DNA of 64,000 nt, taken from the NCBI RefSeq assembly GCF_016124105.1, contig NZ_JADGMQ010000010.1:62001-126000 (forward strand), given 5' to 3'. The notes beneath the pieces are model-generated. The model was given only the letters and a program-made list of their open reading frames with translations. It did no database searches and was not told where the DNA came from. Below, piece after piece: positions 35,239-46,997 of this stretch. The first letter of the stretch is position 1; each line of letters begins with the position of its first letter. The stretch comes from Aquamicrobium zhengzhouense. Lineage in GTDB: Bacteria; Pseudomonadota; Alphaproteobacteria; Rhizobiales; Rhizobiaceae. A program made the position numbers and the translations under genes.

Positions 35239-36210
35239 TTAACCGCCGAAAATGTCGATGAACTTCGCCCGCTCGACTTCGTCGGCAGCGACGGCTGCGT
35301 CGGCGTCGAGAGGCATGAGCTTGATTTCGGACAGCGACGGCATGCCCTCAGGAGCGGCAACGCCTTCCAGAACCGGGATGTAGCCCTGCGAGGCAGCCAG
35401 TTCCTGACCTTCCTTCGAGAGAACGAAGGCGACAAATGCCTTCGCGGCTTCAGCCTTCTCGGTGCCGTTGACGATGGCGACCGGCTCGGCGAAGTAGCTT
35501 GCGCCTTCGGCCGGGTAGACGAACTCAACCGGCGAGCCGGCACGCTTGGCGCGCAGAACGTCGGCGTCGATGTTGATGCCGTACTTCATCTGGCCGCCAG
35601 CGACTGCCTTCAGGACTGGGCCGTTGCCGCCTTCAGGTGCAATGTCGAGCTCAGCAAGACGTTCGTAGTAGGACCAGCCCAGCTTCTCGTCCTGAAGCAC
35701 CGAGTGCATGTGAACGAGGGCAGCGCCCGAATAAAGCGGGCTAGGAGCCGCGATCTGGCCGGCGTTCTCGTCAACCAACAGCTCGGCGTAGCTCGTCACC
35801 GGCTTCGCGTTCTGCGTGTTGTAGACAATACCCGTGGTCGACAGCTTGGTGCCGAAGAAGGTGAAGTCCTTGTCGTAGACCTGGCTATTGACGCCTTCGA
35901 CCGGCGCTTCCGGCCATGGCAGAAGGACCCCGTCACGCTTGAGCATGCCCAGATTGATCGGATCAGCGATCAGCAGGATGTCGGCCTTGATGCCGCCAGC
36001 TTCCCGCTCGGCGCTCATGATGTTCATCAGCTGCGAGGTGCCGTTACGGGTCCACTCGACCTTGATGTCGGGGTGCTTGGCGTGGAAGGCGTCGACGGTC
36101 TGCTGCGCCACTTCCGGCGACTGCGAGGTGTACAGCATCAGCGTGGTCTCCGCGTGAAGCGCGGACGACCCCAGAAGAAGCGCGAAAACGGTGGAGGTGA
36201 TCAGACGCAT
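35239..36210 (-). CDS. ABC transporter substrate-binding protein (AfuA/FbpA/PhnS type)
   Basis: 323 residues with a signal peptide (RLITSTVFALLLGSSALHA). The mature start TTLMLYTSQSPEVAQQTVDAF and KADILLIADPINLGMLKRDG are the pattern of type II binding proteins that take up Fe3+, sugar phosphates (AfuA) or 2-aminoethylphosphonate. The paired tyrosines of ferric-binding FbpA are not evident near residue 225 (YPAEGASYFAEP), so a phosphorylated organic ligand is at least as likely as iron. It overlaps the ATPase gene by 10 bases. Confidence 0.88.
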   Translation of the reverse strand: MRLITSTVFALLLGSSALHAETTLMLYTSQSPEVAQQTVDAFHAKHPDIKVEWTRNGTSQLMNIMSAEREAGGIKADILLIADPINLGMLKRDGVLLPWPEAPVEGVNSQVYDKDFTFFGTKLSTTGIVYNTQNAKPVTSYAELLVDENAGQIAAPSPLYSGAALVHMHSVLQDEKLGWSYYERLAELDIAPEGGNGPVLKAVAGGQMKYGINIDADVLRAKRAGSPVEFVYPAEGASYFAEPVAIVNGTEKAEAAKAFVAFVLSKEGQELAASQGYIPVLEGVAAPEGMPSLSEIKLMPLDADAAVAADEVERAKFIDIFGG

Positions 36211-37355
36211 TGGAACACTTTCTTTTGGTCTGTTGGGGAGGATTGATTGGTTTTGGTGAAGTCGAACTGCGTTCCCTGACCTTCAGGGAGAAGCCAAAGG
36301 TCATCGAACGCGACCCGGGCGTCTTCGCCGGGTTGAGGCAGCGATCCACCGTGATCCGGCAGGTCAATTGTGTAGGTCAGCGAAGGATCGGCATGCGGTC
36401 GGATCTCGAACGACCAGCGGCCACCTCGGTAAACCCGGCTTGTGATGACGACATCCAGCCCGTTCGCCTCGTTCGGACCGCTGAGGCGAAGATTGCTCGG
36501 ATGACAGGTCGCGATTGCCATAGGCACGGGTCCCTGCGCCGCCTCAGCCCGCAGAGCAACCTCGACACCCAGGAGCGTGGCCCGAACCCGGCCGGCATGT
36601 TCCGGGCGAACATTTTCAACCGGGAACAGAAGCCCGTCACCGATGAACGACGCGACAGTCGCGCTCGCAGGCTCCCGGTAAAGCTGGCGAGGGCTGGCGC
36701 ATTGCAGGATGCGACCTTTGTCCATGACCGCGACACGATCCGCCAGCGCCATTGCCTCGGACTGGTCATGGGTGATGTAAACAAGCGTTGCCCCGCTTTC
36801 GCGATGGAAACGTCGGAATTCTTCCTCCATCGTCGCGCGCAGATGCACGTCAAGGTTAGCAAGCGGCTCATCAAGCAGAACAAGATTGTTGCGGGCTGCC
36901 AGGCAGCGAGCGAGCGCGACGCGCTGACGTTGCCCCCCCGAGAGATCTGCGGGGCGCCGCTCTGCAAAGGCGGCCAGATCCACGGTCGCGAGCGCCTCAC
37001 CAACGCGCTCCTCGCGAATGGGCCGCGGCAGACGCGCCACCTTTAACGCGTAGCCGACATTTTCGGCGACCGACATGTGCGGCCACAGTGCGTAGTTCTG
37101 GAAGACGATGCCAACGCCACGCTTTTCTGGCGGCACCATAAGGCCGTGAGCTGCGACAGTCTGATCGCCAAGCTGAACTTCACCCGCGCTCGGCGCTTCG
37201 AAACCCGCAAGCACGCGCAGCAGCGTTGTCTTTCCGCAGCCTGAAGGGCCAAGAACCGCCAGGAACTCACCTGAATTGATTTTCAGGTTGATGTTCTGCA
37301 GCACGGGGGTCCTACCGTACGACTTGCTTACATCCAGCAGGCTTGCACTTGTCAT
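36201..37355 (-). CDS. ABC transporter ATP-binding protein (PotA/FbpC/AfuC type)
   Basis: 384 residues. Walker A LGPSGCGKTTLL, Q-loop FQNYALWPH, signature LSGGQRQRVALARCL, Walker B LVLLDEPLANLD and H-loop YITHDQ are all present. The C-terminal about 120 residues form a TOBE regulatory domain (MAIATCHPSNLRLSG). It is the first gene of the unit ATPase, binding protein, permease, MBL hydrolase, phosphatase. A possible Pho box lies about 70 bases upstream. Confidence 0.92.
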   Translation of the reverse strand: MTSASLLDVSKSYGRTPVLQNINLKINSGEFLAVLGPSGCGKTTLLRVLAGFEAPSAGEVQLGDQTVAAHGLMVPPEKRGVGIVFQNYALWPHMSVAENVGYALKVARLPRPIREERVGEALATVDLAAFAERRPADLSGGQRQRVALARCLAARNNLVLLDEPLANLDVHLRATMEEEFRRFHRESGATLVYITHDQSEAMALADRVAVMDKGRILQCASPRQLYREPASATVASFIGDGLLFPVENVRPEHAGRVRATLLGVEVALRAEAAQGPVPMAIATCHPSNLRLSGPNEANGLDVVITSRVYRGGRWSFEIRPHADPSLTYTIDLPDHGGSLPQPGEDARVAFDDLWLLPEGQGTQFDFTKTNQSSPTDQKKVFQCV

Positions 37356-37526: not shown

Positions 37527-38402
37527 CTATTGCGCCCAGATGTCGCCGCGCAAGAGATAGTCACGCGTGGTCCTGTCGATCGGATAGGTCAGGACGCCAT
37601 CACGACCGAACCATTTGTCGTAAAGCTGCATATAATCGCCCCGGTAGTCTCCAAGACCGCGAAGCAGGTCAACGATGATCGCATTGATGAAGTCGCGCCA
37701 TGCGCTGTCGTCTTGCGGCAGGATACATGCCATCGCCTCGCTTCCAAGAGGCTCGATCCTCGGAAGGAGGACGACGCTCTGGTCGGGCGTCAACTGTCTG
37801 GACAAACCCAGCAGGATAATGCCCACATTGGCCACACCATCGATCTCTCCCTTTCGCAGGGCATCGAAAGCTTGGTCCATCGAGGCATAAGTGCGTGTCT
37901 CCACCCCCGGCAGAGCGTCTGTAAGGATCTGGCCGGTAGTCGTGCCCTGGGCAATCCCGATGATCATGTCCTTAAGCGCCGGCTTTTCTTTCAGGGTCTC
38001 TCGAAAAGCCAGAACGCGTGTTCCATCACGGAAAAACGGGATCGAGAAATCAACGACGGCCTCACGCTCCCATGTCGGGGTAGCGATCTCGCAAACGATG
38101 TCGAGTTGTCTCTCCTCGATCATCTTGATCCGATTGCTCGGCGTTACGACCGTAAGCTCCAGTTCGATAGGCCGGCCGTGCTTTGCCTCAACGGCAGCAC
38201 GGATGCGCTCAAGCAAATCCACTGAAAAGCCGGCGGGTCGCTGAGTTTCGTCCATGAAACCAAATGGAGCGGCATCCACTCTGGTACCTGCGCGCAAGAC
38301 CCCTGAATCGCCAAGACGAGCCAATACGTCAGCACCGGCGACGTTAGGCAAAAAGGTCGTCAGCATCCCACCTACGAGTGCCGCGAATTTCAGTTTTCTC
38401 AC
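37527..38402 (-). CDS. Amino-acid-type (family 3) extracellular solute-binding protein
   Basis: 291 residues from a GTG at 38402, preferred because GGGGG lies upstream and the product then starts with a proper signal peptide (RKLKFAALVGGMLTTFLPNVAGA); an ATG at 38450 is in frame. The mature part is a family 3 binding protein: VLRAGTRVDAAPFGFMDETQ, GFSVDLLERI, DIVCEIATPTWEREAVVDFS. It would bind an amino acid or similar ligand in the periplasm. It is divergent, 95 bases away, from the binding protein-permease fusion, suggesting joint control and possibly a second ligand input to the same complex. Confidence 0.85.
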   Translation of the reverse strand: MRKLKFAALVGGMLTTFLPNVAGADVLARLGDSGVLRAGTRVDAAPFGFMDETQRPAGFSVDLLERIRAAVEAKHGRPIELELTVVTPSNRIKMIEERQLDIVCEIATPTWEREAVVDFSIPFFRDGTRVLAFRETLKEKPALKDMIIGIAQGTTTGQILTDALPGVETRTYASMDQAFDALRKGEIDGVANVGIILLGLSRQLTPDQSVVLLPRIEPLGSEAMACILPQDDSAWRDFINAIIVDLLRGLGDYRGDYMQLYDKWFGRDGVLTYPIDRTTRDYLLRGDIWAQ

Positions 38403-38497
38403 CTGCGCCCCCAAAATCAGATCATTCCAGCGTGCCGTATAAGTGTTCATAAATCCCTATCCGATACTGTACCCCTCAATATCGGCGGGGCGCTGAG

Positions 38498-40054
38498 TTG
38501 CTAAAAAGAAATATCATTTTTGGGCTCATTTTGATGATCCCGTTGCTGGCATCCCCGAGCGCTCGGGCAGATGACCTCGCTCCTGTCCTGCAGACCGGTG
38601 AACTGGTCGTTGGTGTAAAAGCCGACTATCGCCCCTTCGGGTATCGCGACATGGAGGGGGAGCTTGCGGGTTTCGAGGTCGACGTTGCCAAGCGAGTTGC
38701 ACAGCTGCTTGGAGTAAATCTCCGCCTGATCGCCGTTACGAGCTCCGACCGCCTTCAAAAGCTTGCGTCCGGCGAAATCGATGTCCTCATCGCAACCCTT
38801 GGTGACACGATCGACCGCCGCCGCCTCGTTCGCATGATCGAGCCCGGCTATTACGGTGGCGGTGCCAGCGTACTGTTGGAAGAGGCGAGCCCCATACGCA
38901 GTTGGGATGACCTCAAGGGTCGCGAACTTTGCGCAGTGCAGGGTGCGTTGTGGAACCGGTTGGCAGCGACCCGCCTTCTCGCCGAAATCAAGGCATTCGG
39001 CTCGGTGCGTGACGCAGAGCTTGCTCTCCGCGATAAAAGCTGCGCCGGCTGGCTCTACGATGAGGCAGCCATCATGCATCTTCTTGGCAGAGCGGAATGG
39101 TCAGGCTTCCGGATGCTCCCCCCGCAATTCGTCGCGCCATGGGCGATAGCGGTCGCAAATGACGGTCCCCTTGCCACCTTCCTCGACGAGACAGTCGCAA
39201 TGCTTTTGCGGGAGGGGTGGCTCACGCAGTTGGAGAAGACGTGGAACCTACCTCCCTCATCTTACCTGGAGCAGGCCGAACAACGCTGGACCCAGCGGGA
39301 CGCAAACGGCAACTGGCTCTGTCGGCAAGACGAAAATGGCAAATGGCCAGTCGAATGCCGGGACCTGGATTTGATCGAGGCTCAGGACTTGCGTGGGATC
39401 GGCACCGCATTCGTTATGTTGCGGGATCAATTCGGCCTTGACCTTACCCCGTTTTACGACCCTTTCAGCCGGGCCGGATTCTTGAAAGCGCTCGCGACGA
39501 CGATCCTGCTCGCGGTTGCCGCGGTGCTCGGCAGCCTGTTGTTCGGGATAGTGGGCGGCAAAATGCTACAGAGCGAGAAGCGTCTTATTCGTTCCCCTGC
39601 GCAGATGCTGGCCACGTTGTTCCGCATGACCCCCCCGCTGCTGCAACTCTACCTTGTCTTTTTCGGGATTGGCGGCCTGCTCGCCGCCCATGGAGTGACC
39701 TTGAACGCACTTTGGGTCGCGGTGCTGATCCTCTCCCTTTACGCTGGTGCGTCTAATGCGATCGCCATCTCGGAAGCTTCTGCTGCGATTTCAATCCGCG
39801 CGGAGGACCGGGCCAGGAAGGTAGCAAGGCTGGCATACCCGACGGTGATGGGCAGTTGCATAAACATTGTGAAGGCAACAGCCATGGCAAGCGCCATTGC
39901 GGTCGGTGAACTCTTACACGCCAGCACGGCGATCATCGCAGATTACGGCAATGTTGCCGTCATGATGAACATACTGCTCGGCTGCTATGTCGCGCTCGTT
40001 CTGGCAGTCGTTTATGCCTTCGGGCAGGTCGAGAAGAGGCTGCTCGCGCGATGA
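38498..40054 (+). CDS. Fused amino-acid-type substrate-binding protein and ABC permease
   Basis: 518 residues from a TTG followed by a clear signal peptide (LKRNIIFGLILMIPLLASPSARA). Residues about 30-250 are a family 3 binding domain (ELVVGVKADYRPFGYRDMEG, GFEVDVAKRVAQLLG). A linker with WLCRQDENGKWPVECRD, two W/C-bearing DxNGxW units, leads to a HisM-like permease (about 325-518). The permease coupling loop is degenerate: EASAAISIRAEDRARKVARLAYP lacks the usual EAA-x3-G. The stop overlaps the next permease gene, and no HisP-type ATPase is present. With the following RsbW- and RsbU-like genes it may serve as a sensor rather than a transporter. Confidence 0.85.
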   Translation: MLKRNIIFGLILMIPLLASPSARADDLAPVLQTGELVVGVKADYRPFGYRDMEGELAGFEVDVAKRVAQLLGVNLRLIAVTSSDRLQKLASGEIDVLIATLGDTIDRRRLVRMIEPGYYGGGASVLLEEASPIRSWDDLKGRELCAVQGALWNRLAATRLLAEIKAFGSVRDAELALRDKSCAGWLYDEAAIMHLLGRAEWSGFRMLPPQFVAPWAIAVANDGPLATFLDETVAMLLREGWLTQLEKTWNLPPSSYLEQAEQRWTQRDANGNWLCRQDENGKWPVECRDLDLIEAQDLRGIGTAFVMLRDQFGLDLTPFYDPFSRAGFLKALATTILLAVAAVLGSLLFGIVGGKMLQSEKRLIRSPAQMLATLFRMTPPLLQLYLVFFGIGGLLAAHGVTLNALWVAVLILSLYAGASNAIAISEASAAISIRAEDRARKVARLAYPTVMGSCINIVKATAMASAIAVGELLHASTAIIADYGNVAVMMNILLGCYVALVLAVVYAFGQVEKRLLAR

Positions 40055-40734
40055 CGAACGCAGAAGCCGCCGAAATGCTGTTCGTCTGGACGCCGTTCCT
40101 GGCCCAAGGCTTCGCATGGAATATCGTCATCTCTCTGGCAGCCATGGCAATCGGAACTCCTATTGGCATCTTCCTTGCACAGCTCCGCCTATCCGGTTCA
40201 CGCGCCGCATCCTGGCTTACCGCAATGGCTCGCCTGCCTCCTACATTCGTTTTGCTCTTCTATTTCGCCTATTTGCTGCCTGGTGAGTTCGCATTTGGCA
40301 ATCTCAAGGTCGAAGTCCCGGCCTGGCTAAAGGCCTCGCTGGCGCTTTCTGTGGCGGTTGTAGGCTTTGTTTCTGACAACGCTCAACCTTGCATCCGCCA
40401 TCTGCGTCGGGGAGAGCGCCTCGAGGCGCTGTACTTCATTCCGGCATGGACGACCTACTTCCTGATCATCGTGATGGCTTCTTCGACTGCGTCTGTGATC
40501 GGAGTGCCGGAACTCGTAAATCGTGCGAACACGGTGATTGCGGCCGCAGGAGAACACGCGGCAACACTTTGGGTCTACAGCTACGCAATGCTGTGGTTTC
40601 TTGGATTTTGCCTGCCACTATCGTGGCTGATGAACTGGCTTAGGGTCGGCCTTGCAGCTCAAGGCAACAACGTTGACCCAAGCGGAGCAAACGTCAAAGT
40701 TGCCGTTAGGGCAGATGGGAGGGCGGATCAATGA
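40051..40734 (+). CDS. Amino-acid-type ABC permease subunit (degenerate coupling loop)
   Basis: 227 residues, HisM/GlnP-like, four to five helices. The segment GERLEALYFIPAWTTYFLIIVMASSTASVIG takes the place of the EAA loop and following helix, but lacks the expected conserved glycine. It overlaps the fused binding protein-permease by four bases (ATGA) and the RsbW-like gene by four bases. The two permease halves would make a heterodimeric membrane core. No ATPase is encoded in the cluster. Confidence 0.83.
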   Translation: MTNAEAAEMLFVWTPFLAQGFAWNIVISLAAMAIGTPIGIFLAQLRLSGSRAASWLTAMARLPPTFVLLFYFAYLLPGEFAFGNLKVEVPAWLKASLALSVAVVGFVSDNAQPCIRHLRRGERLEALYFIPAWTTYFLIIVMASSTASVIGVPELVNRANTVIAAAGEHAATLWVYSYAMLWFLGFCLPLSWLMNWLRVGLAAQGNNVDPSGANVKVAVRADGRADQ

Positions 40735-41168
40735 CAGGTACCGACACTTCCGAGGAGCGATTTGAAGTTGAACCTCGGCTTGAATCGATCGCCCTCATCC
40801 AGGATGCGATTGAAGACGCTGCGCAGGGCGCCCTGGATACGCGCCGCCTTTTTCAGCTCAACATGTCGGTAGAGGAGCTGGTCACCAATGTCGTGCGCCA
40901 CAGTGGAACTGCCGACCCGGTCGGCGTGGTGATCCGCAAGGGACCAGGCCACATCTCGGTTGAGATTGTCGATCACGGGGTGGCATTCGATCCGTTCAAG
41001 CAAGCGCCCAAGCCCGCGATAGACGCCGAACTCGATCAGCGCCCTGTAGGCGGTCTTGGCGTGCACCTTGTCCAGGTCATGCTTGATAAGGTGGAATACC
41101 GCCGCGAGAGCGAGCGAAACCACGTCATCCTCACCATGAACACGCAGACGGGCGGGACCGGCACATGA
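40731..41168 (+). CDS. RsbW-like ATP-binding protein (HATPase_c_2, anti-sigma-type serine kinase)
   Basis: 145 residues. The GHKL ATP site is visible: N box LNMSVEELVTNVVRHSG (about residues 43-58), G1 box EIVDHGVAFDPF and G2 box PVGGLGVHLVQVMLDKVEY. Such proteins bind a sigma or effector protein and phosphorylate a STAS antagonist. It overlaps the ABC permease upstream and the PP2C phosphatase downstream by four bases each, and the STAS gene is convergent at the end of the phosphatase gene, completing a partner-switching triad. Confidence 0.9.
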   Translation: MTGTDTSEERFEVEPRLESIALIQDAIEDAAQGALDTRRLFQLNMSVEELVTNVVRHSGTADPVGVVIRKGPGHISVEIVDHGVAFDPFKQAPKPAIDAELDQRPVGGLGVHLVQVMLDKVEYRRESERNHVILTMNTQTGGTGT

Positions 41169-43150
41169 CGCTCACAAGACGCCTTATCTTCATGGTCGCC
41201 GCATGCATAACAATGGCGGTCATTACCCTGAGCCTTGTTTTCGGCTGGCTCGGACGCTCCGCGCTTATCGAACAGGCCTCATCACAGGCTCAGACTGTTG
41301 CGCGGATCGTCGCTGAAAGCGCGCGTTTGACCGAGATTTCGCTGGAGGAAATGCAGCAGGTTATCTCCAACGATCTGTCGAATCTTGCCTTTGCCGTCTC
41401 ACGCGTTCCCGCGCCTGAGAAACAGGGGCACGGTACCCTGCTTGCGGAGATTGCAGCACGGGGAAATCTACCGGCCCTCTGGATAGTGGACGAAGATCTG
41501 CAGATCGTGGCCAGCTCTGTCGGCGATTACAAGGCGGTCGTGAACGGCGAAAGCCTTCCGGCGGGCCTGTCAAAGCCTGCGCTTGAAGCCCTGGCTCAGG
41601 GTGGCCGCTTCACCTTGCCGCTGGGTGGTTCAGCTGATGGCGCGCAATTCGTCGGGGTACGCATCGAAGGTGGCGGCGCAATTATTGCTGGCCAGTCCAT
41701 GGAGATTTTGGAGACCGTCCGGACGGTGAACAGTCTGCCCGTGCTCCTTGGCGCGTTGCTGAACCAGAACGAAATGCAATCGATCATCGTCTTCGATGAT
41801 GATCAGAAGATGCTCGCCTCGGTCGGCGAGGATGTGCAGGACAGCCAGGCCAAGGGGCTTGCCGCAGCCGCACTCGTCGCCACTGCCCCTCGTCTCGATA
41901 TCTCTGCCGATCGCGTATTCGTTGCGGCACCCATCCTCGACACCGCCGGAATCGCAATCGGCTCCACCGTCATTTCGCAATCGCGAAATCGCCTCAACCA
42001 GATGCTCTTCGACTATCTGGTGTATGGGCTGGGCACTATCGGGCTGGTGCTTGCAGGGGGCATTGGAGCCGCCGCTGTCTTCGCGAGCCGGATCGCACGC
42101 CCTGTTGCCGAAATGACGAGGGCCGCCAGAGAAATGGATGGCCGCAAGTTCAAGCCGGAGAGCCTAGATAGCCTCGCCTGCACCCCGGACGAGCTGGGGG
42201 TTCTCGCCCGTGTATTCCAGAACATGGCGATCGAAGTTCAGGCGCGCGAAGAACATCTTGAATCACAGGTACGCGCGCGCACTGCCGAGCTTCACCAAAA
42301 GAACCTCCTGCTTGAAGAAACGCAACGCCGGGTCGAGGCTGAACTTGATGCTGCGCGGACATTGCAAGCGGCAATTCTTCCGCAGGACCTGCCTGATCAT
42401 CCAGCCTATGTCGGCAAGGCCACCATGGTTCCAGCAAGGGAGTTGGGCGGCGACTTTTATGATTTCTTCATGATCAACGAGCGAGATTTGGGCATCGTGA
42501 TCGCCGACGTTTCGGGCAAAGGCGTGCCTGCCGCGTTCTTCATGGCGATCTCCCGCACGATCCTCCAGGCTTGTGCGCGCGATTCCATCTCCGCTGGCGA
42601 ATGCCTGGGCGCTGCAAATGACGCACTGTGCGCGCAAAACCCGATGGACCTGTTTGTCACAACCTTCTACGGCATCCTCAACACCGAGACAGGTGTCCTG
42701 ACCTACGCCAATGGTGGGCACAATCCACCCATGATAGTCCGCCGCGGCGATGGAAGCGTTGCGGATCTCCCCCGCACGGGCGGCATTGCCCTCGGCGTCT
42801 TCCCCGGAGCAAAATACAAGCAGGCCAGCGTCAACCTCAGCGAGGGCGATACCCTCTTCCTCTACACCGACGGCATATCGGAAGCGATGGATTCAGCAGG
42901 CAAGGAATTTACCGAGGAAAGGCTCCGGGCAGCGCTGCAAACTGCAGACCGCGTAAGCGTCGATCGTGTGCTGGACGACGTGACATCAGCAGTTGAGACG
43001 TTCGTAGGCGGAGCCGAGCAATCCGACGACATTACTTGCCTGGTCGTGCGCTACAATGGAACGCAGCGCACGGATGGCGACAACGGATCAGATGGCAGCG
43101 AGAGCGGCCTCGCGGTCGTCCGCAGTCTCGAGAATGCTGAGGAAGCCTGA
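41165..43150 (+). CDS. Membrane-bound SpoIIE/RsbU-type PP2C phosphatase with periplasmic sensor and HAMP
   Basis: 661 residues. Helix 1 is about residues 6-28, a periplasmic sensor region runs to about 285, helix 2 is about 285-312, then a HAMP region (SRIARPVAEMTRAAREMDG), a coiled coil (about 355-395) and a PP2C domain (about 405-635). Metal residues are in ELGGDFYDFF, VIADVSGKGVPAAFFMA, YANGGHNPP, LYTDGISEAMD and SDDITCLVVRY. It would dephosphorylate the STAS protein when the periplasmic part receives a signal. It overlaps the RsbW-like gene, and its 3' end overlaps the convergent STAS gene by 63 bases. Confidence 0.92.
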   Translation: MTLTRRLIFMVAACITMAVITLSLVFGWLGRSALIEQASSQAQTVARIVAESARLTEISLEEMQQVISNDLSNLAFAVSRVPAPEKQGHGTLLAEIAARGNLPALWIVDEDLQIVASSVGDYKAVVNGESLPAGLSKPALEALAQGGRFTLPLGGSADGAQFVGVRIEGGGAIIAGQSMEILETVRTVNSLPVLLGALLNQNEMQSIIVFDDDQKMLASVGEDVQDSQAKGLAAAALVATAPRLDISADRVFVAAPILDTAGIAIGSTVISQSRNRLNQMLFDYLVYGLGTIGLVLAGGIGAAAVFASRIARPVAEMTRAAREMDGRKFKPESLDSLACTPDELGVLARVFQNMAIEVQAREEHLESQVRARTAELHQKNLLLEETQRRVEAELDAARTLQAAILPQDLPDHPAYVGKATMVPARELGGDFYDFFMINERDLGIVIADVSGKGVPAAFFMAISRTILQACARDSISAGECLGAANDALCAQNPMDLFVTTFYGILNTETGVLTYANGGHNPPMIVRRGDGSVADLPRTGGIALGVFPGAKYKQASVNLSEGDTLFLYTDGISEAMDSAGKEFTEERLRAALQTADRVSVDRVLDDVTSAVETFVGGAEQSDDITCLVVRYNGTQRTDGDNGSDGSESGLAVVRSLENAEEA

Positions 43151-43414
43151 GATATCGAAGACGTCGCGAATGTGCGGCTGCAAGCCTGACAGAACAAACC
43201 TGCCGCCTTCGCGTTGAAGTTTCTTCGCAACGACTAATACGACCCGCAACCCAGCACTCGATATATAATCCAGAGAACTGGCGTCCATCACCACGTTTGC
43301 GCTTTCGATATTCTCGAAAATTTCCTTTTCAACCGCAGCAGCATTGGTGCTGTCCAATCGCCCGTTAAGGTGAATCACGACAGCTTTTTCTGTCTTATCG
43401 AATTTTATGCTCAT
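43088..43414 (-). CDS. STAS-domain anti-anti-sigma factor-like protein
   Basis: 108 residues, a single STAS domain. It shows VVIHLNGRLDSTNAAAVEKEI and the phosphorylation block MDASSLDYISSAGLRVVL, with the target serine expected in ISSAG (about residue 54). By family it is phosphorylated by the RsbW-like kinase and dephosphorylated by the PP2C protein. It is convergent with, and overlaps by 63 bases, the PP2C gene, so it has its own promoter to the right. No sigma factor is encoded nearby, so the final target may not be a sigma factor. Confidence 0.92.
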   Translation of the reverse strand: MSIKFDKTEKAVVIHLNGRLDSTNAAAVEKEIFENIESANVVMDASSLDYISSAGLRVVLVVAKKLQREGGRFVLSGLQPHIRDVFDISGFLSILETADDREAALAAI

Positions 43415-43637
43415 GAACGTTCTCGCTGTTGCGGTTGCGGGCCCGGAAATTAGGATGGAAAGGTAAATATTTTAGCGGCCGCAACGCAACACTTACCAGA
43501 ACATTAGATAATGATAATATACACCTTACACGGCCGACCTTTATGCAGTTAGATATAGAGCTTGTTCATATTTTTCGTGCAAATGTCTTGCTGAGTTTCA
43601 GGAACGATCACATTCCACGGGTCTCTGGTTCAGCGCC

Positions 43638-43668
43638 CGGGCCCCGCATTCACATTGGGAGGGGCCCG
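43638..43668 (+). promoter_or_regulatory. Hairpin covering the ribosome site of the carbonic anhydrase gene
   Basis: 8-bp perfect stem CGGGCCCC (43638-43645) / GGGGCCCG (43661-43668), loop 15 nt. The 3' arm ends one base before the ATG (43670) and takes in part of the GGGAGGGG ribosome site, so folding would hinder initiation. Confidence 0.5.
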
Positions 43669-43669
43669 A

Positions 43670-44365
43670 ATGACAGATCACCATCAGCCCGGTTGCGGTT
43701 GCCGCGACATCAACCACCTCGTTGAAGGTGTAAAGACGTTCAAAAGCACCAATTACGGCCAAGAACTCGACATGATGCGCAAGCTCGTCGAAGAAGGTCA
43801 GTCTCCAGCCACGCTGATTATTTCTTGCTCAGATAGCCGTGTAGATCCTGCGTTGCTGACCGGCGCAAAACCCGGAGAGCTGTTTACTGTCCGTAACGTC
43901 GCCAATCTCGTGCCACCCTATGCACCGGGTGCATCTCTGCATGGGACCGGCGCCGCTATTGAATACGCCGTGCGCGATCTCAAGGTCGACCACATCGTCG
44001 TCCTGGGACATGCGCATTGTGGAGGCATCAAGGCGCTGATCGCCGGCGCCGCGGGCAATCGCATGGAACGCGACTTTATCAATGACTGGATGGATATTGC
44101 CCTGGATGCGACCGAGCTGAAGGTGAACGATCCGACTGCCGAGTCCGGCCGCCGCACTGTCACGCTGGAATGGCTGCAGCACAACACCTTTCTGGTCGAG
44201 CGCTCCGCGATCATGAACTCCATCCGAAACCTCATGAGCTATCCCTGGCTGCGTGACCGCGTGGAGACAGGAACGCTGCAGCTTCACGGATGGTGGTTTG
44301 ACCTGGAGACCGGAGATCTCTGGAAAACGCAGCCCGGTGGCGATCAACTTATGCCAGTCCTTTAA
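43670..44365 (+). CDS. Beta-carbonic anhydrase
   Basis: 231 residues from ATG 43670 (GGGAGGGG upstream). It interconverts CO2 and bicarbonate. Zinc ligands are seen in ISCSDSRVDP (Cys and Asp, about residues 47-50) and in VLGHAHCGGI (His and Cys, about residues 107-110). FTVRNVANLVPPYAP is a further family block. The gap before it (43415-43669) is A+T-rich around 43495-43560 and probably carries its promoter. The NCS2-like permease gene follows after 20 bases, implying a joint role, for instance anion supply. Confidence 0.94.
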   Translation: MTDHHQPGCGCRDINHLVEGVKTFKSTNYGQELDMMRKLVEEGQSPATLIISCSDSRVDPALLTGAKPGELFTVRNVANLVPPYAPGASLHGTGAAIEYAVRDLKVDHIVVLGHAHCGGIKALIAGAAGNRMERDFINDWMDIALDATELKVNDPTAESGRRTVTLEWLQHNTFLVERSAIMNSIRNLMSYPWLRDRVETGTLQLHGWWFDLETGDLWKTQPGGDQLMPVL

Positions 44366-44385
44366 TTTTCTGACGAGGCAGAACC

Positions 44386-46098
44386 GTGCGTCGTCCGGAA
44401 GCAATTATATACTGGACCAATGAGGTCCCCCCAGCCCGCATTGCATTCGGGCTGGCACTGCAGCAGGCCGCCTTCCTGGGCGCCCTCCTCGCGGTGCCCT
44501 CGCTGATTGGGCGAGAGCTCGGCCTGAACCATGAGCAGCTTCTGGCGCTCGTCGGCTGCGGCTTGATTTATTCGGCAGTTGCACTCCTGTTGCAGGCGTT
44601 TGGACGTTTCGGCATCGGGGCCGGGATATTCCTGCCCGTGCAGGGCACCACCTCTGTGCTACCACTCCTTCTCCTGGCCGGCTCAACGGTGGGGCTTGGG
44701 GGTGGTTTCGGCATGTTCGCTGTCAGCGGACTGTCCATGATCGCCTTCTCGTTCCTGATCAGACGTTTGAGAACCATCTTCACGGTCGAGGTCGCGGGCC
44801 TTGCCATGCTGCTCATCGGCGCGGGCATCGGCATGATCGGCCTGAGGTTGATTTTCAGCCTTGATGACACCGAGAGCACGTCCCCACTCGAGTTTACTGT
44901 CGCGGCCATCACGCTTTCTGTGATGATCATCTGCAATGTCTGGGTAAAAAGCCGGCTCCGACTGTTCGCGACAATGACGGGTCTTGGTGTCGGGCTGGTT
45001 CTCAGCTGGATATTCGGCCTCCTGACACCTCAAGATGTGCTCGTCTTCCATCAAGCGAGTTGGCTCGAATTTCCTGACATCCAGCAATTTGGCTGGCAAT
45101 TCGACGCCGATCTTCTCGTGCCGGCAATCATTACGGGCTTTTCCCTGTCCCTGACATCGATGGGTGTTCAGATCACCGCGCAGCGTTTTATGGATGCCGA
45201 CTTTTCGCATCCGGACTTCCAGTCCATCGGGCGGGGTGTACGTGCTGAGGGACTGGCGCAGATATTCGCCTCTCTGATCAATGCCCTGCCGATGTCGGCA
45301 AGTGGTGGGGCAGCGAGTTTGGCTCTGGCATCAGGCTGTACGAGCCGTTACCTCGCGCCATGGACCGCAGCTTTACTGCTTATGATCGCGATCTGCCCAA
45401 AGTTCATCGTGGCATGGCTTATCCTGCCCGGAGAAGTTCTGGGAGCGCTGTTCCTGTTCTTGTCGTCCTTCGCCGTCATTGGCGGCATGCAGATGATCGG
45501 CTCACGGATGCTAGATAATCGGCGAACGCTCGCCATCGGCATCCCCTTGCTGATCTTCCTTGCCTATGGCGACGTCCGGATTGGTCTTGAAAGCCTCCTC
45601 TCTGCAGCCCGCTATTTCGACTTCTCCTCTTTCGCGCTCTCTCTGACGACGGCCGTCCTCCTCCAGGCGATTTTCCGTATCGGCGTTGGACGACGAACCC
45701 GTGAGGTGTTTCAGGTCGCAGATACACATTTCGATGAGATGCGAAATTTCATCGAGGGACAGGGCAAGGTTTGGGGTGCGCGGCACCAGTCCGTAAAACG
45801 GGCGGAACTTGCCTCATGGCAAGCCCTTGAACTTTTGATGGACAACGCTCTTCTGGCACCGGACGCCAAGACGGTTGAACTGGAAACGCGTCTGGATGAA
45901 CACAACCTCGCAATCATCATGCGTTATCAAGGCGTTCTGCCGGAGATCTCCAATCGGCGTCCAAGCCCCGAGGAGATGATTGAGGACGAGCATGCTCCTC
46001 AGCGGATGGCAGGCTATCTCATTCACCGGCTGGCAGACCAGGTGCGTACACGCAAGGACGGTGAGCACGCTGAGCTGCGCCTCACCTTCCGGGATTGA
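44386..46098 (+). CDS. SLC23/NCS2-like permease with C-terminal RsbW-like (HATPase) domain
   Basis: 570 residues from a GTG with GAGG upstream. Residues 1 to about 440 form 12 or so helices of a NCS2-like (xanthine/uracil permease superfamily) carrier: QQAAFLGALLAVPSLIGRE, GAGIFLPVQGTTSVLPLL and SLTSMGVQITAQRFMDAD. The soluble tail (about 455-570) reads like a degenerate anti-sigma kinase domain: ELASWQALELLMDNALLA in place of the N box and QRMAGYLIHRLADQV in place of the G2 lid. It lies 20 bases after the carbonic anhydrase gene. A permease directly carrying a partner-switching-type domain is unusual. Substrate unknown. Confidence 0.8.
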   Translation: MRRPEAIIYWTNEVPPARIAFGLALQQAAFLGALLAVPSLIGRELGLNHEQLLALVGCGLIYSAVALLLQAFGRFGIGAGIFLPVQGTTSVLPLLLLAGSTVGLGGGFGMFAVSGLSMIAFSFLIRRLRTIFTVEVAGLAMLLIGAGIGMIGLRLIFSLDDTESTSPLEFTVAAITLSVMIICNVWVKSRLRLFATMTGLGVGLVLSWIFGLLTPQDVLVFHQASWLEFPDIQQFGWQFDADLLVPAIITGFSLSLTSMGVQITAQRFMDADFSHPDFQSIGRGVRAEGLAQIFASLINALPMSASGGAASLALASGCTSRYLAPWTAALLLMIAICPKFIVAWLILPGEVLGALFLFLSSFAVIGGMQMIGSRMLDNRRTLAIGIPLLIFLAYGDVRIGLESLLSAARYFDFSSFALSLTTAVLLQAIFRIGVGRRTREVFQVADTHFDEMRNFIEGQGKVWGARHQSVKRAELASWQALELLMDNALLAPDAKTVELETRLDEHNLAIIMRYQGVLPEISNRRPSPEEMIEDEHAPQRMAGYLIHRLADQVRTRKDGEHAELRLTFRD

Positions 46099-46103
46099 GC
46101 GTC

Positions 46104-46997
46104 ATGGCAAAATCGCAACCCCGGCGGACGAGCGGAACGGAGGCGCCCGAACATCACGACGCGACCATGCGAGAGGCGCGCACTCCCCCTCCTGGACTAA
46201 GTGGTGTCGGAGTCACAGCGTTGATAGCGAAAAGCTATGACCGATACTTCAGTTCCGGTCTTTACCACTCACGTTATCCGCGCCCCAATCGACGAACTTT
46301 GCGCCTGATCGAGCGCCTCGTTCCACATGGGGGACGTCTCCTCGACTACGGCGCTGGCGAAGGTCGCTACGGCCTCGCCGTTGCGCAGTCACGTGCGGCA
46401 AAGGTGGTCGCGGTCGACATCAGCGAGACAGCACGCCATGCTCTTGCCGCTCAAATAGATCGGGCCAAGCTTTCCGATCAGTTCAAAATCTGCAGCCCCG
46501 GAGACGCCGTCTATCAGGAGGAAGTGGTTCTTGCAGGCAACTTCGATGTAGTCCTGTTTGCGTTCGGAGTTTTAGGACATATTGCAGGACGAGAGAGGCG
46601 AGTTGCGCTGCTTCGCGGATTGCTCCCTTCACTCGCGCCAGACGGCCGGCTGGTGTTGGGCCTGCCCAACAAACGACGGCGGTTCCGCAACGAACAAGCC
46701 GCAATGGTTCAGTCAAGCCGCCCACCTGATTTTGAGGAAGGCGACCTTTACTACCACCGCTACAGCGAGGAAGGCAGCGTCGAGCTTTTCTATCACCTGT
46801 TCGATCGCCAGGAGGTTATTCGCGATCTGACAGATGCTGGCTATGAAATAGAGCATCTAACGGGTGAAAGCCTGCTCCCTGAAACAGCGGTAACGAGGTA
46901 CAAAAGTCTCGGCTGTCTCGACGACGCTTGCAGCAGCGTCCTGCCGTCGGATTGGAGCTACGGATTTCTCGTCAGCGCCAAAATCGCAGGTGCTTAG
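46104..46997 (+). CDS. Class I SAM-dependent methyltransferase
   Basis: 297 residues from the ATG at 46104, six bases after the permease stop. The SAM site is LLDYGAGEGRYGLAVAQS (motif I, about residues 78-95), VVAVDISETARHALAAQ, and FDVVLFAFGVLGHI (motif II). A roughly 60-residue charged N-terminal part precedes it (SYDRYFSSGLYHSRYPRPNR). It is on the same strand as the carbonic anhydrase and permease genes and probably co-transcribed. The acceptor is not predictable. Confidence 0.85.
   Translation: MAKSQPRRTSGTEAPEHHDATMREARTPPPGLSGVGVTALIAKSYDRYFSSGLYHSRYPRPNRRTLRLIERLVPHGGRLLDYGAGEGRYGLAVAQSRAAKVVAVDISETARHALAAQIDRAKLSDQFKICSPGDAVYQEEVVLAGNFDVVLFAFGVLGHIAGRERRVALLRGLLPSLAPDGRLVLGLPNKRRRFRNEQAAMVQSSRPPDFEEGDLYYHRYSEEGSVELFYHLFDRQEVIRDLTDAGYEIEHLTGESLLPETAVTRYKSLGCLDDACSSVLPSDWSYGFLVSAKIAGA

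What the first reader, a model, noticed from the sequence alone, without database searches (positions are those of the whole stretch)
37527..43414. ATPase-less ABC transporter parts wired to a partner-switching module: a candidate new sensory system
A binding protein, a binding protein-permease fusion and a second permease are present, but there is no HisP-type ATPase. In its place, overlapped by four bases, stands an RsbW-like GHKL kinase, then an RsbU/SpoIIE phosphatase with a periplasmic sensor and HAMP, and a convergent STAS protein. Both permease coupling loops look degenerate. The simplest reading is that the ABC-type complex has been turned into a ligand sensor: the GHKL protein could dock on the membrane core where the ATPase normally sits, and ligand state would set STAS phosphorylation. 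No sigma factor is linked, so the output may be another process, perhaps the adjoining carbonic anhydrase/permease pair.
Basis: partly seen in the sequence, partly recalled or inferred. Interest (0 to 1): 0.82.

Follow-up and report, generated by a model that had tools for sequence, protein, structure and literature searches.

The report
ABC importer turned into kinase-coupled receptor
In this bacterium and its relatives, the membrane half of a nutrient pump has lost its motor and the loops that hold the motor, and is tied instead to a signalling kinase, sometimes in one protein, so it probably senses a nutrient rather than importing it.

Summary
At 37527-43414: a family-3 binding protein, a binding protein-permease fusion, a second permease, an RsbW-like GHKL kinase, a SpoIIE phosphatase and a convergent STAS protein; no HisP-type ATPase. 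Three results support conversion of the ABC core. (1) The coupling loop of the second permease is 37 residues in 15 of 15 short-loop relatives, 57 in all permeases measured at ATPase-bearing loci; the fused permease is cut to 39-48 in 16 of 16. (2) In 6 of 16 such loci the second permease and RsbW are one unbroken frame, a natural permease-kinase fusion. (3) The sister lineage keeps intact loops and an ATPase next to RsbW, a plausible intermediate. Selection is purifying. Two corrections: the ATPase docking helices are what was deleted, so the kinase is more likely tethered by the permease tail; and RsbW is not universal: two relatives from another class have none detectable in the genome, and none is linked in a Vibrio, while a methyltransferase is linked in 16 of 19 loci, as often as SpoIIE. 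Ligand and output are unknown.

The parts
37527..38450 (-). SBP1: family-3 periplasmic binding protein, divergent from the operon
   Evidence: PF00497 E 2.8e-22; GrrP orphan-SBP model 132 bits, below its cut-off of 190; a homologue (41-76% identity) beside the operon in 17 of 19 loci, the window included
38498..40054 (+). SBP-permease fusion; coupling-loop stretch 41 residues instead of 57
   Evidence: PF00497 E 3.4e-24, TIGR01726 47.9 bits; loop; dN/dS 0.07-0.12 in five pairs
39743..39865 (+). shortened coupling-loop stretch of the fused permease (41 codons between anchors)
40051..40734 (+). perm2: second permease; coupling-loop stretch 37 residues instead of 57
   Evidence: TIGR01726 36.8 bits, under the cut-off of 42.2; loop; dN/dS 0.06-0.09 in five pairs
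40357..40467 (+). shortened coupling-loop stretch of perm2 (37 codons between anchors; 20 residues with the EAA/coupling helix absent)
40731..41168 (+). RsbW/SpoIIAB-like GHKL serine kinase
   Evidence: PF13581 E 2e-20; N-box Asn, G1 Asp and G2 Gly present in the alignment (motif names recalled); fused to perm2 in six relatives
41165..43150 (+). SpoIIE-type PP2C phosphatase with N-terminal membrane/periplasmic region and HAMP
   Evidence: PF07228 E 9.5e-52, PF00672 2e-5; the Asp residues of the four catalytic motifs kept in 15 of 15 aligned sequences
43088..43414 (-). STAS anti-anti-sigma-like protein with conserved Ser (SSAGL)
   Evidence: PF01740 E 1.1e-19, TIGR00377 79.5 bits; SSAGL in 14 of 14 STAS rows
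43655..44365 (+). beta-carbonic anhydrase, linked in only 3 of 19 loci
   Evidence: PF00484 E 5.8e-46; linkage
44386..46098 (+). NCS2 (nucleobase-type) permease with degenerate RsbW-fold C-terminal domain (residues about 436-570)
   Evidence: PF00860 E 5.9e-35; model; Foldseek to UapA/UraA and to anti-sigma factor UsfX; hhalign to RsbW 75.6% probability
46095..46997 (+). MT: class I SAM methyltransferase
   Evidence: Methyltransf_23 E 4.6e-11; linked in 16 of 19 loci and in a Vibrio locus

Best explanation
This is an ABC importer of the polar amino acid type whose membrane core has been converted into a receptor. SHOWN: no ATPase is linked; the cytoplasmic stretches that should carry the coupling helices are cut by 20 residues (perm2) and 9-18 residues (fused permease); the kinase gene follows perm2 directly or is fused to it in most short-loop loci; phosphatase and STAS keep their catalytic or acceptor motifs; the proteins are under purifying selection. 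INFERRED: a small ligand, probably amino-acid-like, is bound by the periplasmic SBP1 and by the SBP tethered to the permease. The docked state moves the two permeases, and this changes the activity or accessibility of the RsbW kinase held by the C-terminal tail of perm2 at the inner face of the membrane. RsbW phosphorylates the STAS protein; SpoIIE, with its own periplasmic region and HAMP, removes the phosphate. The pool of unphosphorylated STAS is the output and switches partners. The partner is unknown: candidates are the degenerate RsbW-like domain of the NCS2 permease, the methyltransferase, or an unlinked protein such as a sigma factor. The route was probably stepwise: importer; importer linked to partner switching (still seen in one lineage); loss of ATPase and coupling loops; permease-kinase fusion.
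For: Loop length between fixed anchors: 57 in 58 of 58 permeases of 29 comparison loci (28 distinct: L077 is the same place as L033) and in 6 of 6 permeases of the ATPase-bearing sister lineage; 37 in 15 of 15 short-loop perm2 (L066 left out, its contig ends inside perm2); 39-48 in 16 of 16 short-loop fused permeases. An EAA-type pattern of mine is found in 58/58, 5/6, 0/15 and 0/16. Pfam control: PF00528 matches 5 of 5 loop-intact permeases, 0 of 5 short-loop ones. Own-genome control: the 8 other permeases over the TIGR01726 cut-off keep 56 residues in an alignment where the window's two have 36 and 40. Fusion: perm2 and RsbW in one unbroken frame in L040, L085, L086, L087, L088 and L089, among them isolates of Kaistia and Zavarzinia and a single-contig genome, G225; the model of one such chain matches both RsbW/SpoIIAB and an amino acid ABC transporter chain. 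Sister lineage: ATPase next to RsbW, with STAS, SpoIIE and MT; its sequence shows Walker A, signature and Walker B (motif names recalled). A tree with the coupling-loop columns left out groups all short-loop loci (UFBoot 87 as printed, midpoint root) as sister to it. Purifying selection. The SBP domain of the fusion keeps, at the places recalled as typical of amino acid binding, Arg in 19 of 19 and Asp in 18 of 19.
Against: RsbW is not universal among short-loop permeases: G806 and G911 have no match in the whole genome at E<=1e-5, none was found in 17.4 kb around the Vibrio locus, and in G443 and G555 it is not next to perm2. So RsbW cannot be required for whatever these permeases do everywhere. 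In 4 of the 6 fused proteins the G1-box Asp of RsbW is Tyr, so ATP binding there is doubtful. ABC ATPases of another type (FbpC-like, 37-44% identical to the window's own) lie a few kb from the operon in L040 and L087-L089; I did not identify their own permeases, so a partnership there is excluded only by the short loops. For G582 the absence of an ATPase cannot be seen (contig end). SpoIIE has its own periplasmic region and could be the only sensor. Ligand, effect on the kinase and output are untested; no complex was modelled, and the linker of the fusion model is of low confidence. A leak or ATP-independent transport is not excluded.
Confidence: 0.66

Rival explanations
1. ATP-independent transporter or channel: the permeases still let the ligand through (facilitated or ion-coupled), and the partner-switching module regulates that flow.
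For: Both permeases are conserved under purifying selection; short-loop relatives exist without RsbW, so some function other than controlling RsbW must exist there; an NCS2 permease is linked in 9 of 19 loci.
Against: No precedent is known to me for a type I importer core working without its ATPase; fusion to a kinase and the linked phosphatase (16 of 19) and STAS (14 of 19) genes point to signalling.
Confidence: 0.15
2. A working importer that borrows an ATPase encoded elsewhere.
For: The genome holds 72 ABC ATPase matches at E<=1e-20, and one SBP-permease pair with an intact loop on contig 26 has no ATPase match in the 16 kb read, so sharing may occur; FbpC-like ATPases lie near the operon in the window and in some relatives.
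Against: Both coupling loops are cut in all short-loop loci and intact at ATPase-bearing loci; the four best HisP-type ATPases sit with their own permeases.
Confidence: 0.04
3. Ordinary sigma-factor partner switching: RsbW is the anti-sigma factor of an unlinked sigma factor, SpoIIE is the only sensor, and the ABC part is a membrane anchor or a neighbour.
For: RsbW, SpoIIE and STAS keep the standard motifs; in Rhodobacter capsulatus the rbaVW pair also has no sigma gene nearby (PMC3999984, passages read); the genome has 7 Sigma70_r2 matches above cut-off.
Against: Does not explain the loop deletions, the permease-kinase fusion or the sister lineage with its ATPase. The sigma-output half of this rival is compatible with the best explanation.
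Confidence: 0.11
4. A decaying transporter operon.
For: Loss of ATPase and of loop residues would fit the first steps of decay.
Against: dN/dS 0.06-0.12 for both permeases in five genome pairs, exact 37-residue loop in 15 of 15, conservation across orders and in another class.
Confidence: 0.01

Closest known systems
Polar amino acid ABC importers (HisQMP/ArtQMP type; TIGR01726 permeases; structure 4yms)
   Same: SBP family 3, two HEQRo-type permeases, gene order SBP-permease-permease; Foldseek match of the fusion model to 4yms chain C
   Different: no ATPase linked, coupling loops deleted, SBP fused to permease, kinase in the ATPase's gene position
RsbU/RsbV/RsbW and SpoIIE/SpoIIAA/SpoIIAB partner switching
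   Same: GHKL kinase, STAS protein with SSAGL serine, PP2C phosphatase, motifs conserved
   Different: no linked sigma factor; kinase tied or fused to an ABC-type permease
SiaABCD of Pseudomonas (SiaA-type phosphatase; cluster recalled)
   Same: SpoIIE-HAMP phosphatase with periplasmic region; SiaA model 101.5 bits, far below its cut-off of 700
   Different: no GGDEF-domain match among the nine proteins from 37527 to 46997; receptor-like ABC core present
RbaVWY of Rhodobacter capsulatus (PMC3999984)
   Same: alphaproteobacterial partner switching without a linked sigma gene (passages read)
   Different: the words transporter and permease do not occur in the paper's main text; its phosphatase has a REC domain
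Slr1861/Ssr1600-SigC of Synechocystis (PMC12329169, abstract and outline read)
   Same: partner switching tied to an environmental nutrient, inorganic carbon
   Different: sigma factor output known; no ABC core mentioned in the abstract
Transporters that act as co-sensors (for example PstSCAB-PhoR, BceAB-BceS; recalled, not tested)
   Same: ABC transporter complex conveys ligand state to a kinase
   Different: those keep a working ATPase

Membership tests
Polar amino acid ABC importer | HEQRo-type permease domain | tested here: met
   SBP-permease 47.9 bits over the cut-off of 42.2; perm2 36.8 bits, under it; genome scan 52.8 and 39.3 bits; PF00528 not matched by either
Polar amino acid ABC importer | cognate HisP-type ATPase | tested here: not met
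   none linked; the four best matches sit with their own permeases
Polar amino acid ABC importer | EAA loop/coupling helix in each permease | tested here: not met
   0 of 15 and 0 of 16 against 58 of 58 comparison permeases
Polar amino acid ABC importer | family-3 SBP | tested here: met
   two SBP_bac_3 domains
Polar amino acid ABC importer | ATP-driven uptake | not testable with these tools
   needs an assay
RsbW/STAS/SpoIIE partner switching | GHKL kinase with N-box, G1 and G2 motifs | tested here: met
   met in the window; 4 of 14 aligned RsbW, all fused, have Tyr for the G1 Asp
RsbW/STAS/SpoIIE partner switching | STAS protein with phosphorylatable Ser | tested here: met
   SSAGL in 14 of 14 rows
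RsbW/STAS/SpoIIE partner switching | PP2C phosphatase with metal-binding Asp | tested here: met
   motif Asp residues in 15 of 15 aligned; the first Gly of one motif replaced in L065
RsbW/STAS/SpoIIE partner switching | binding partner released by STAS (sigma factor or other) | tested here: inconclusive
   no Sigma70_r2 match on the contig; partner unknown
RsbW/STAS/SpoIIE partner switching | phosphorylation cycle | not testable with these tools
   needs a kinase assay
SiaABCD | diguanylate cyclase SiaD in the cluster | tested here: not met
   no GGDEF match among the nine proteins from 37527 to 46997
NCS2 transporters (44386-46098) | Xan_ur_permease domain and fold | tested here: met
   PF00860 E 5.9e-35; UapA/UraA matches

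The most novel reading that the evidence does not exclude
A new class of bacterial receptors derived from ABC importers: ATPase and coupling helices removed, substrate-binding protein fused outside and a signalling enzyme tied or fused inside, with exchangeable outputs (RsbW kinase in many alphaproteobacteria, something else in another class and in Vibrio), a methyltransferase that stays linked even where no RsbW is found, and possibly direct control of a second transporter through a pseudo-kinase domain that has the fold of the kinase's own family.
Probability: 0.5. Interest if true: 0.92.

Novelty: new variant of a known kind. Interest (0 to 1): 0.82.

Why it matters
If true, a primary transporter core was rebuilt into a receptor by removing the parts that bind its motor and attaching a kinase, with a living intermediate (sister lineage with ATPase and kinase side by side) and an end state (fusion protein). 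It would give a clean test of how a substrate-loaded binding protein signals through an ABC membrane domain without ATP hydrolysis, and would name a direct membrane input for partner switching in bacteria where no sigma factor is linked to it.

Tried and rejected
Importer with shared ATPase: made unlikely by the loop measurements. Decay: rejected on dN/dS; the window/L083 pair there has dS 1.5-3.4, near saturation, so the four closer pairs carry the argument. In one search two SBP1 rows (L085/L086 and window/L083) compared non-orthologous binding proteins (33% and 27% identity) and are not used. Carbonic anhydrase as general output: weak, 3 of 19 loci. NCS2 permease as the dedicated output: not settled. 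Kinase docking at the old ATPase site: not favoured. Extra flanks of G443, G806, G911 and G430 (L130-L133) gave no match to ten local profiles of operon and comparison families.

Literature: ten searches listed no paper whose title or abstract start describes an ATPase-less ABC core linked or fused to RsbW; the library holds only open-licence PMC papers and no preprints. Papers opened: PMC3999984 (passages), PMC3223731 (passages), PMC12329169 (abstract and outline); the rest were seen as listings.

Plasmid records gave no closer member (20 records, all under 60% identity); a Vibrio member came from there. Phage, viral and E. coli collections were not searched. Nothing outside about 33-48 kb of the window was studied.
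Full report
WHAT IS THERE. Next to them are a carbonic anhydrase, an NCS2-type permease and a methyltransferase (MT) whose frame, from its first start codon, overlaps the NCS2 gene by 4 bases. Nothing between 37527 and 46997 is an ABC ATPase; the neighbouring ATPase frame at 36201-37355 lies in a run with its own binding-protein-like and permease-like frames (read by eye).

THE OPERON IS CONSERVED. In a sample of 297 genomes of the order, 6 including the window's own have a perm2 of at least 58% identity, and the five others have SBP-permease, perm2, RsbW and SpoIIE in order. At E<=1e-40, 8 of 385 genomes of the class and 3 of 398 of the phylum, its own included each time, have an unbroken full-length SBP-permease. 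Named members are Aquamicrobium, Corticibacterium, Zavarzinia (two), Bosea, Kaistia, Mesorhizobium sp. BR1-1-16 and Oryzicola. Of the 16, RsbW is a separate gene next to perm2 in 5, fused to perm2 in 6, not next to perm2 in 2 (G443, G555), out of sight at a contig end in 1 (G582, where ATPase absence cannot be seen either), and absent from the genome at E<=1e-5 in 2 (G806, G911). The 24 next nearest perm2 relatives given as loci (L015-L038; 28-34% identity by tblastn) have an ABC ATPase directly after perm2 in 24 of 24. Linkage over the 19 loci, plus G430: SpoIIE 16, MT 16, RsbW 15, STAS 14, NCS2 9, carbonic anhydrase 3.

THE COUPLING LOOPS ARE DELETED. Between two anchors in the membrane helices, perm2 has 37 residues in 15 of 15 short-loop loci (G582 dropped, incomplete); the ATPase-bearing sister lineage has 57 in 3 of 3 and the comparison permeases 57 in 58 of 58 (29 loci, 28 distinct). 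The fused permease has 39-48 in 16 of 16, against 57 in 3 of 3. An EAA-type pattern of my own making is present in 58 of 58 comparison permeases, 5 of 6 of the sister lineage and 0 of 31 short-loop ones. In the window's own genome the 8 other permeases above the TIGR01726 cut-off measure 56 where the window's two measure 36 and 40 (one column shorter by choice of anchor). The general permease model PF00528 matched 5 of 5 loop-intact permeases that I gave it and 0 of 5 short-loop ones. A Vibrio member has 30 and 35 residues. That EAA/coupling helices are where the ATPase binds is established knowledge, recalled.

PERMEASE-KINASE FUSION. In L040, L085, L086, L087, L088 and L089 the perm2 frame runs without a stop into RsbW (aligned for five of them). 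The predicted chain (mean pLDDT 66, linker low) matches RsbW and SpoIIAB structures (TM by target up to 0.87) and an amino acid ABC transporter chain (4yms_C, TM by target 0.67). Positive residues after the last helix put the tail in the cytoplasm (inference from sequence).

ORDER OF EVENTS. In G611 the run is STAS, SpoIIE, MT, SBP1, SBP-permease, perm2, ATPase, RsbW on one strand. In G530 and G430 the ATPase also stands next to RsbW, in a STAS-SpoIIE-MT-ATPase-RsbW block apart from the permeases, in G430 by several kb. The three ATPase sequences show Walker A, signature and Walker B. A tree of both permeases with the coupling-loop columns left out puts all short-loop loci in one clade (UFBoot 87 as printed after midpoint rooting), sister to this lineage. 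The fusion occurs in two subclades, so it arose twice or was split.

IS IT ALIVE. dN/dS for SBP-permease and perm2 is 0.06-0.12 in five pairs, one of them near saturation in dS. STAS Ser and the phosphatase Asp residues are conserved. The G1 Asp of RsbW is kept in 10 of 14 and is Tyr in 4, all in one fused subclade; kinase activity there is doubtful, which counts against a uniform mechanism.

WHAT GOES AGAINST A SIMPLE STORY. G806, G911 and the Vibrio show short-loop permeases without detectable or linked RsbW. In Vibrio the next gene encodes a protein with a dCache-like region (36 bits, under the cut-off of 45). MT is linked in 16 of 19 loci, as often as SpoIIE, and stays linked in G806 and Vibrio, where no RsbW was found; it could be an effector or make the signal, and nothing here decides. 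FbpC-like ATPases lie a few kb away in L040 and L087-L089, and their permeases were not identified. SpoIIE has its own periplasmic part.

OUTPUT. The genome has one SpoIIE, one RsbW-like gene well above the rest (73 bits; the next of nine matches 39) and one short STAS frame among four, and no Sigma70_r2 match on this contig. The NCS2 permease ends in a domain with the secondary structure order of RsbW, matched by Foldseek to the anti-sigma factor UsfX (8jzt_B, 8ih8_D; E 9e-5, TM by target 0.73-0.74; that the aligned part is the C-terminal domain is inferred from lengths) and by hhalign to the operon's RsbW (75.6%). Its nucleotide-binding motifs are not kept by eye, so it may be a docking domain for STAS. 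A single-protein search found the domain in 10 of 372 class genomes, all in NCS2 frames where read; 7 of the 10 gave no full-length SBP-permease match, so this link is a lead only.

VERDICT. The sensor reading is the best explanation (0.66); the exact docking idea is replaced by a tether. The parts are known kinds; the arrangement was not found in ten searches of an open-licence library (listed in Tried and rejected).

Noticed in passing
window 44386-46098; L145-L153: A subfamily of NCS2 permeases carries a degenerate RsbW/anti-sigma-fold C-terminal domain; found in 10 of 372 class genomes, 7 of them without a full-length SBP-permease match. Fold supported.
   Followed up: partly
L142:7012-12249 (Vibrio sp. 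THAF191d plasmid pTHAF191d_b): MT, short-loop SBP-permease and perm2 with no ATPase or RsbW match in the 17.4 kb read, followed by a gene with a dCache-like region and a C-terminal part that looks to me like a Cys-loop-type channel (recalled likeness, not tested).
   Followed up: partly
L129:7433-9470 (own genome, contig 26): Binding protein and permease with intact loop but no ABC ATPase match in the 16 kb read.
   Followed up: partly
L067:119-5913 (G555): RsbW, STAS, GPP34, ammonium transporter, a second STAS and type III glutamine synthetase close to the short-loop operon.
   Followed up: no
L085:15189-20271 (Zavarzinia MAG): Two NCS2-type permeases, a methyltransferase and a carbonic anhydrase in one row beside the operon.
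   Followed up: no
L135:3282-6324 (G443): STAS, a Pkinase-domain protein and RsbW in a row, on another contig than this genome's SBP-permease operon.
   Followed up: no
window 38498-40054 and homologues: The linker between SBP and permease holds a conserved motif with two Cys in 19 of 19 aligned sequences, possibly a disulfide.
   Followed up: no
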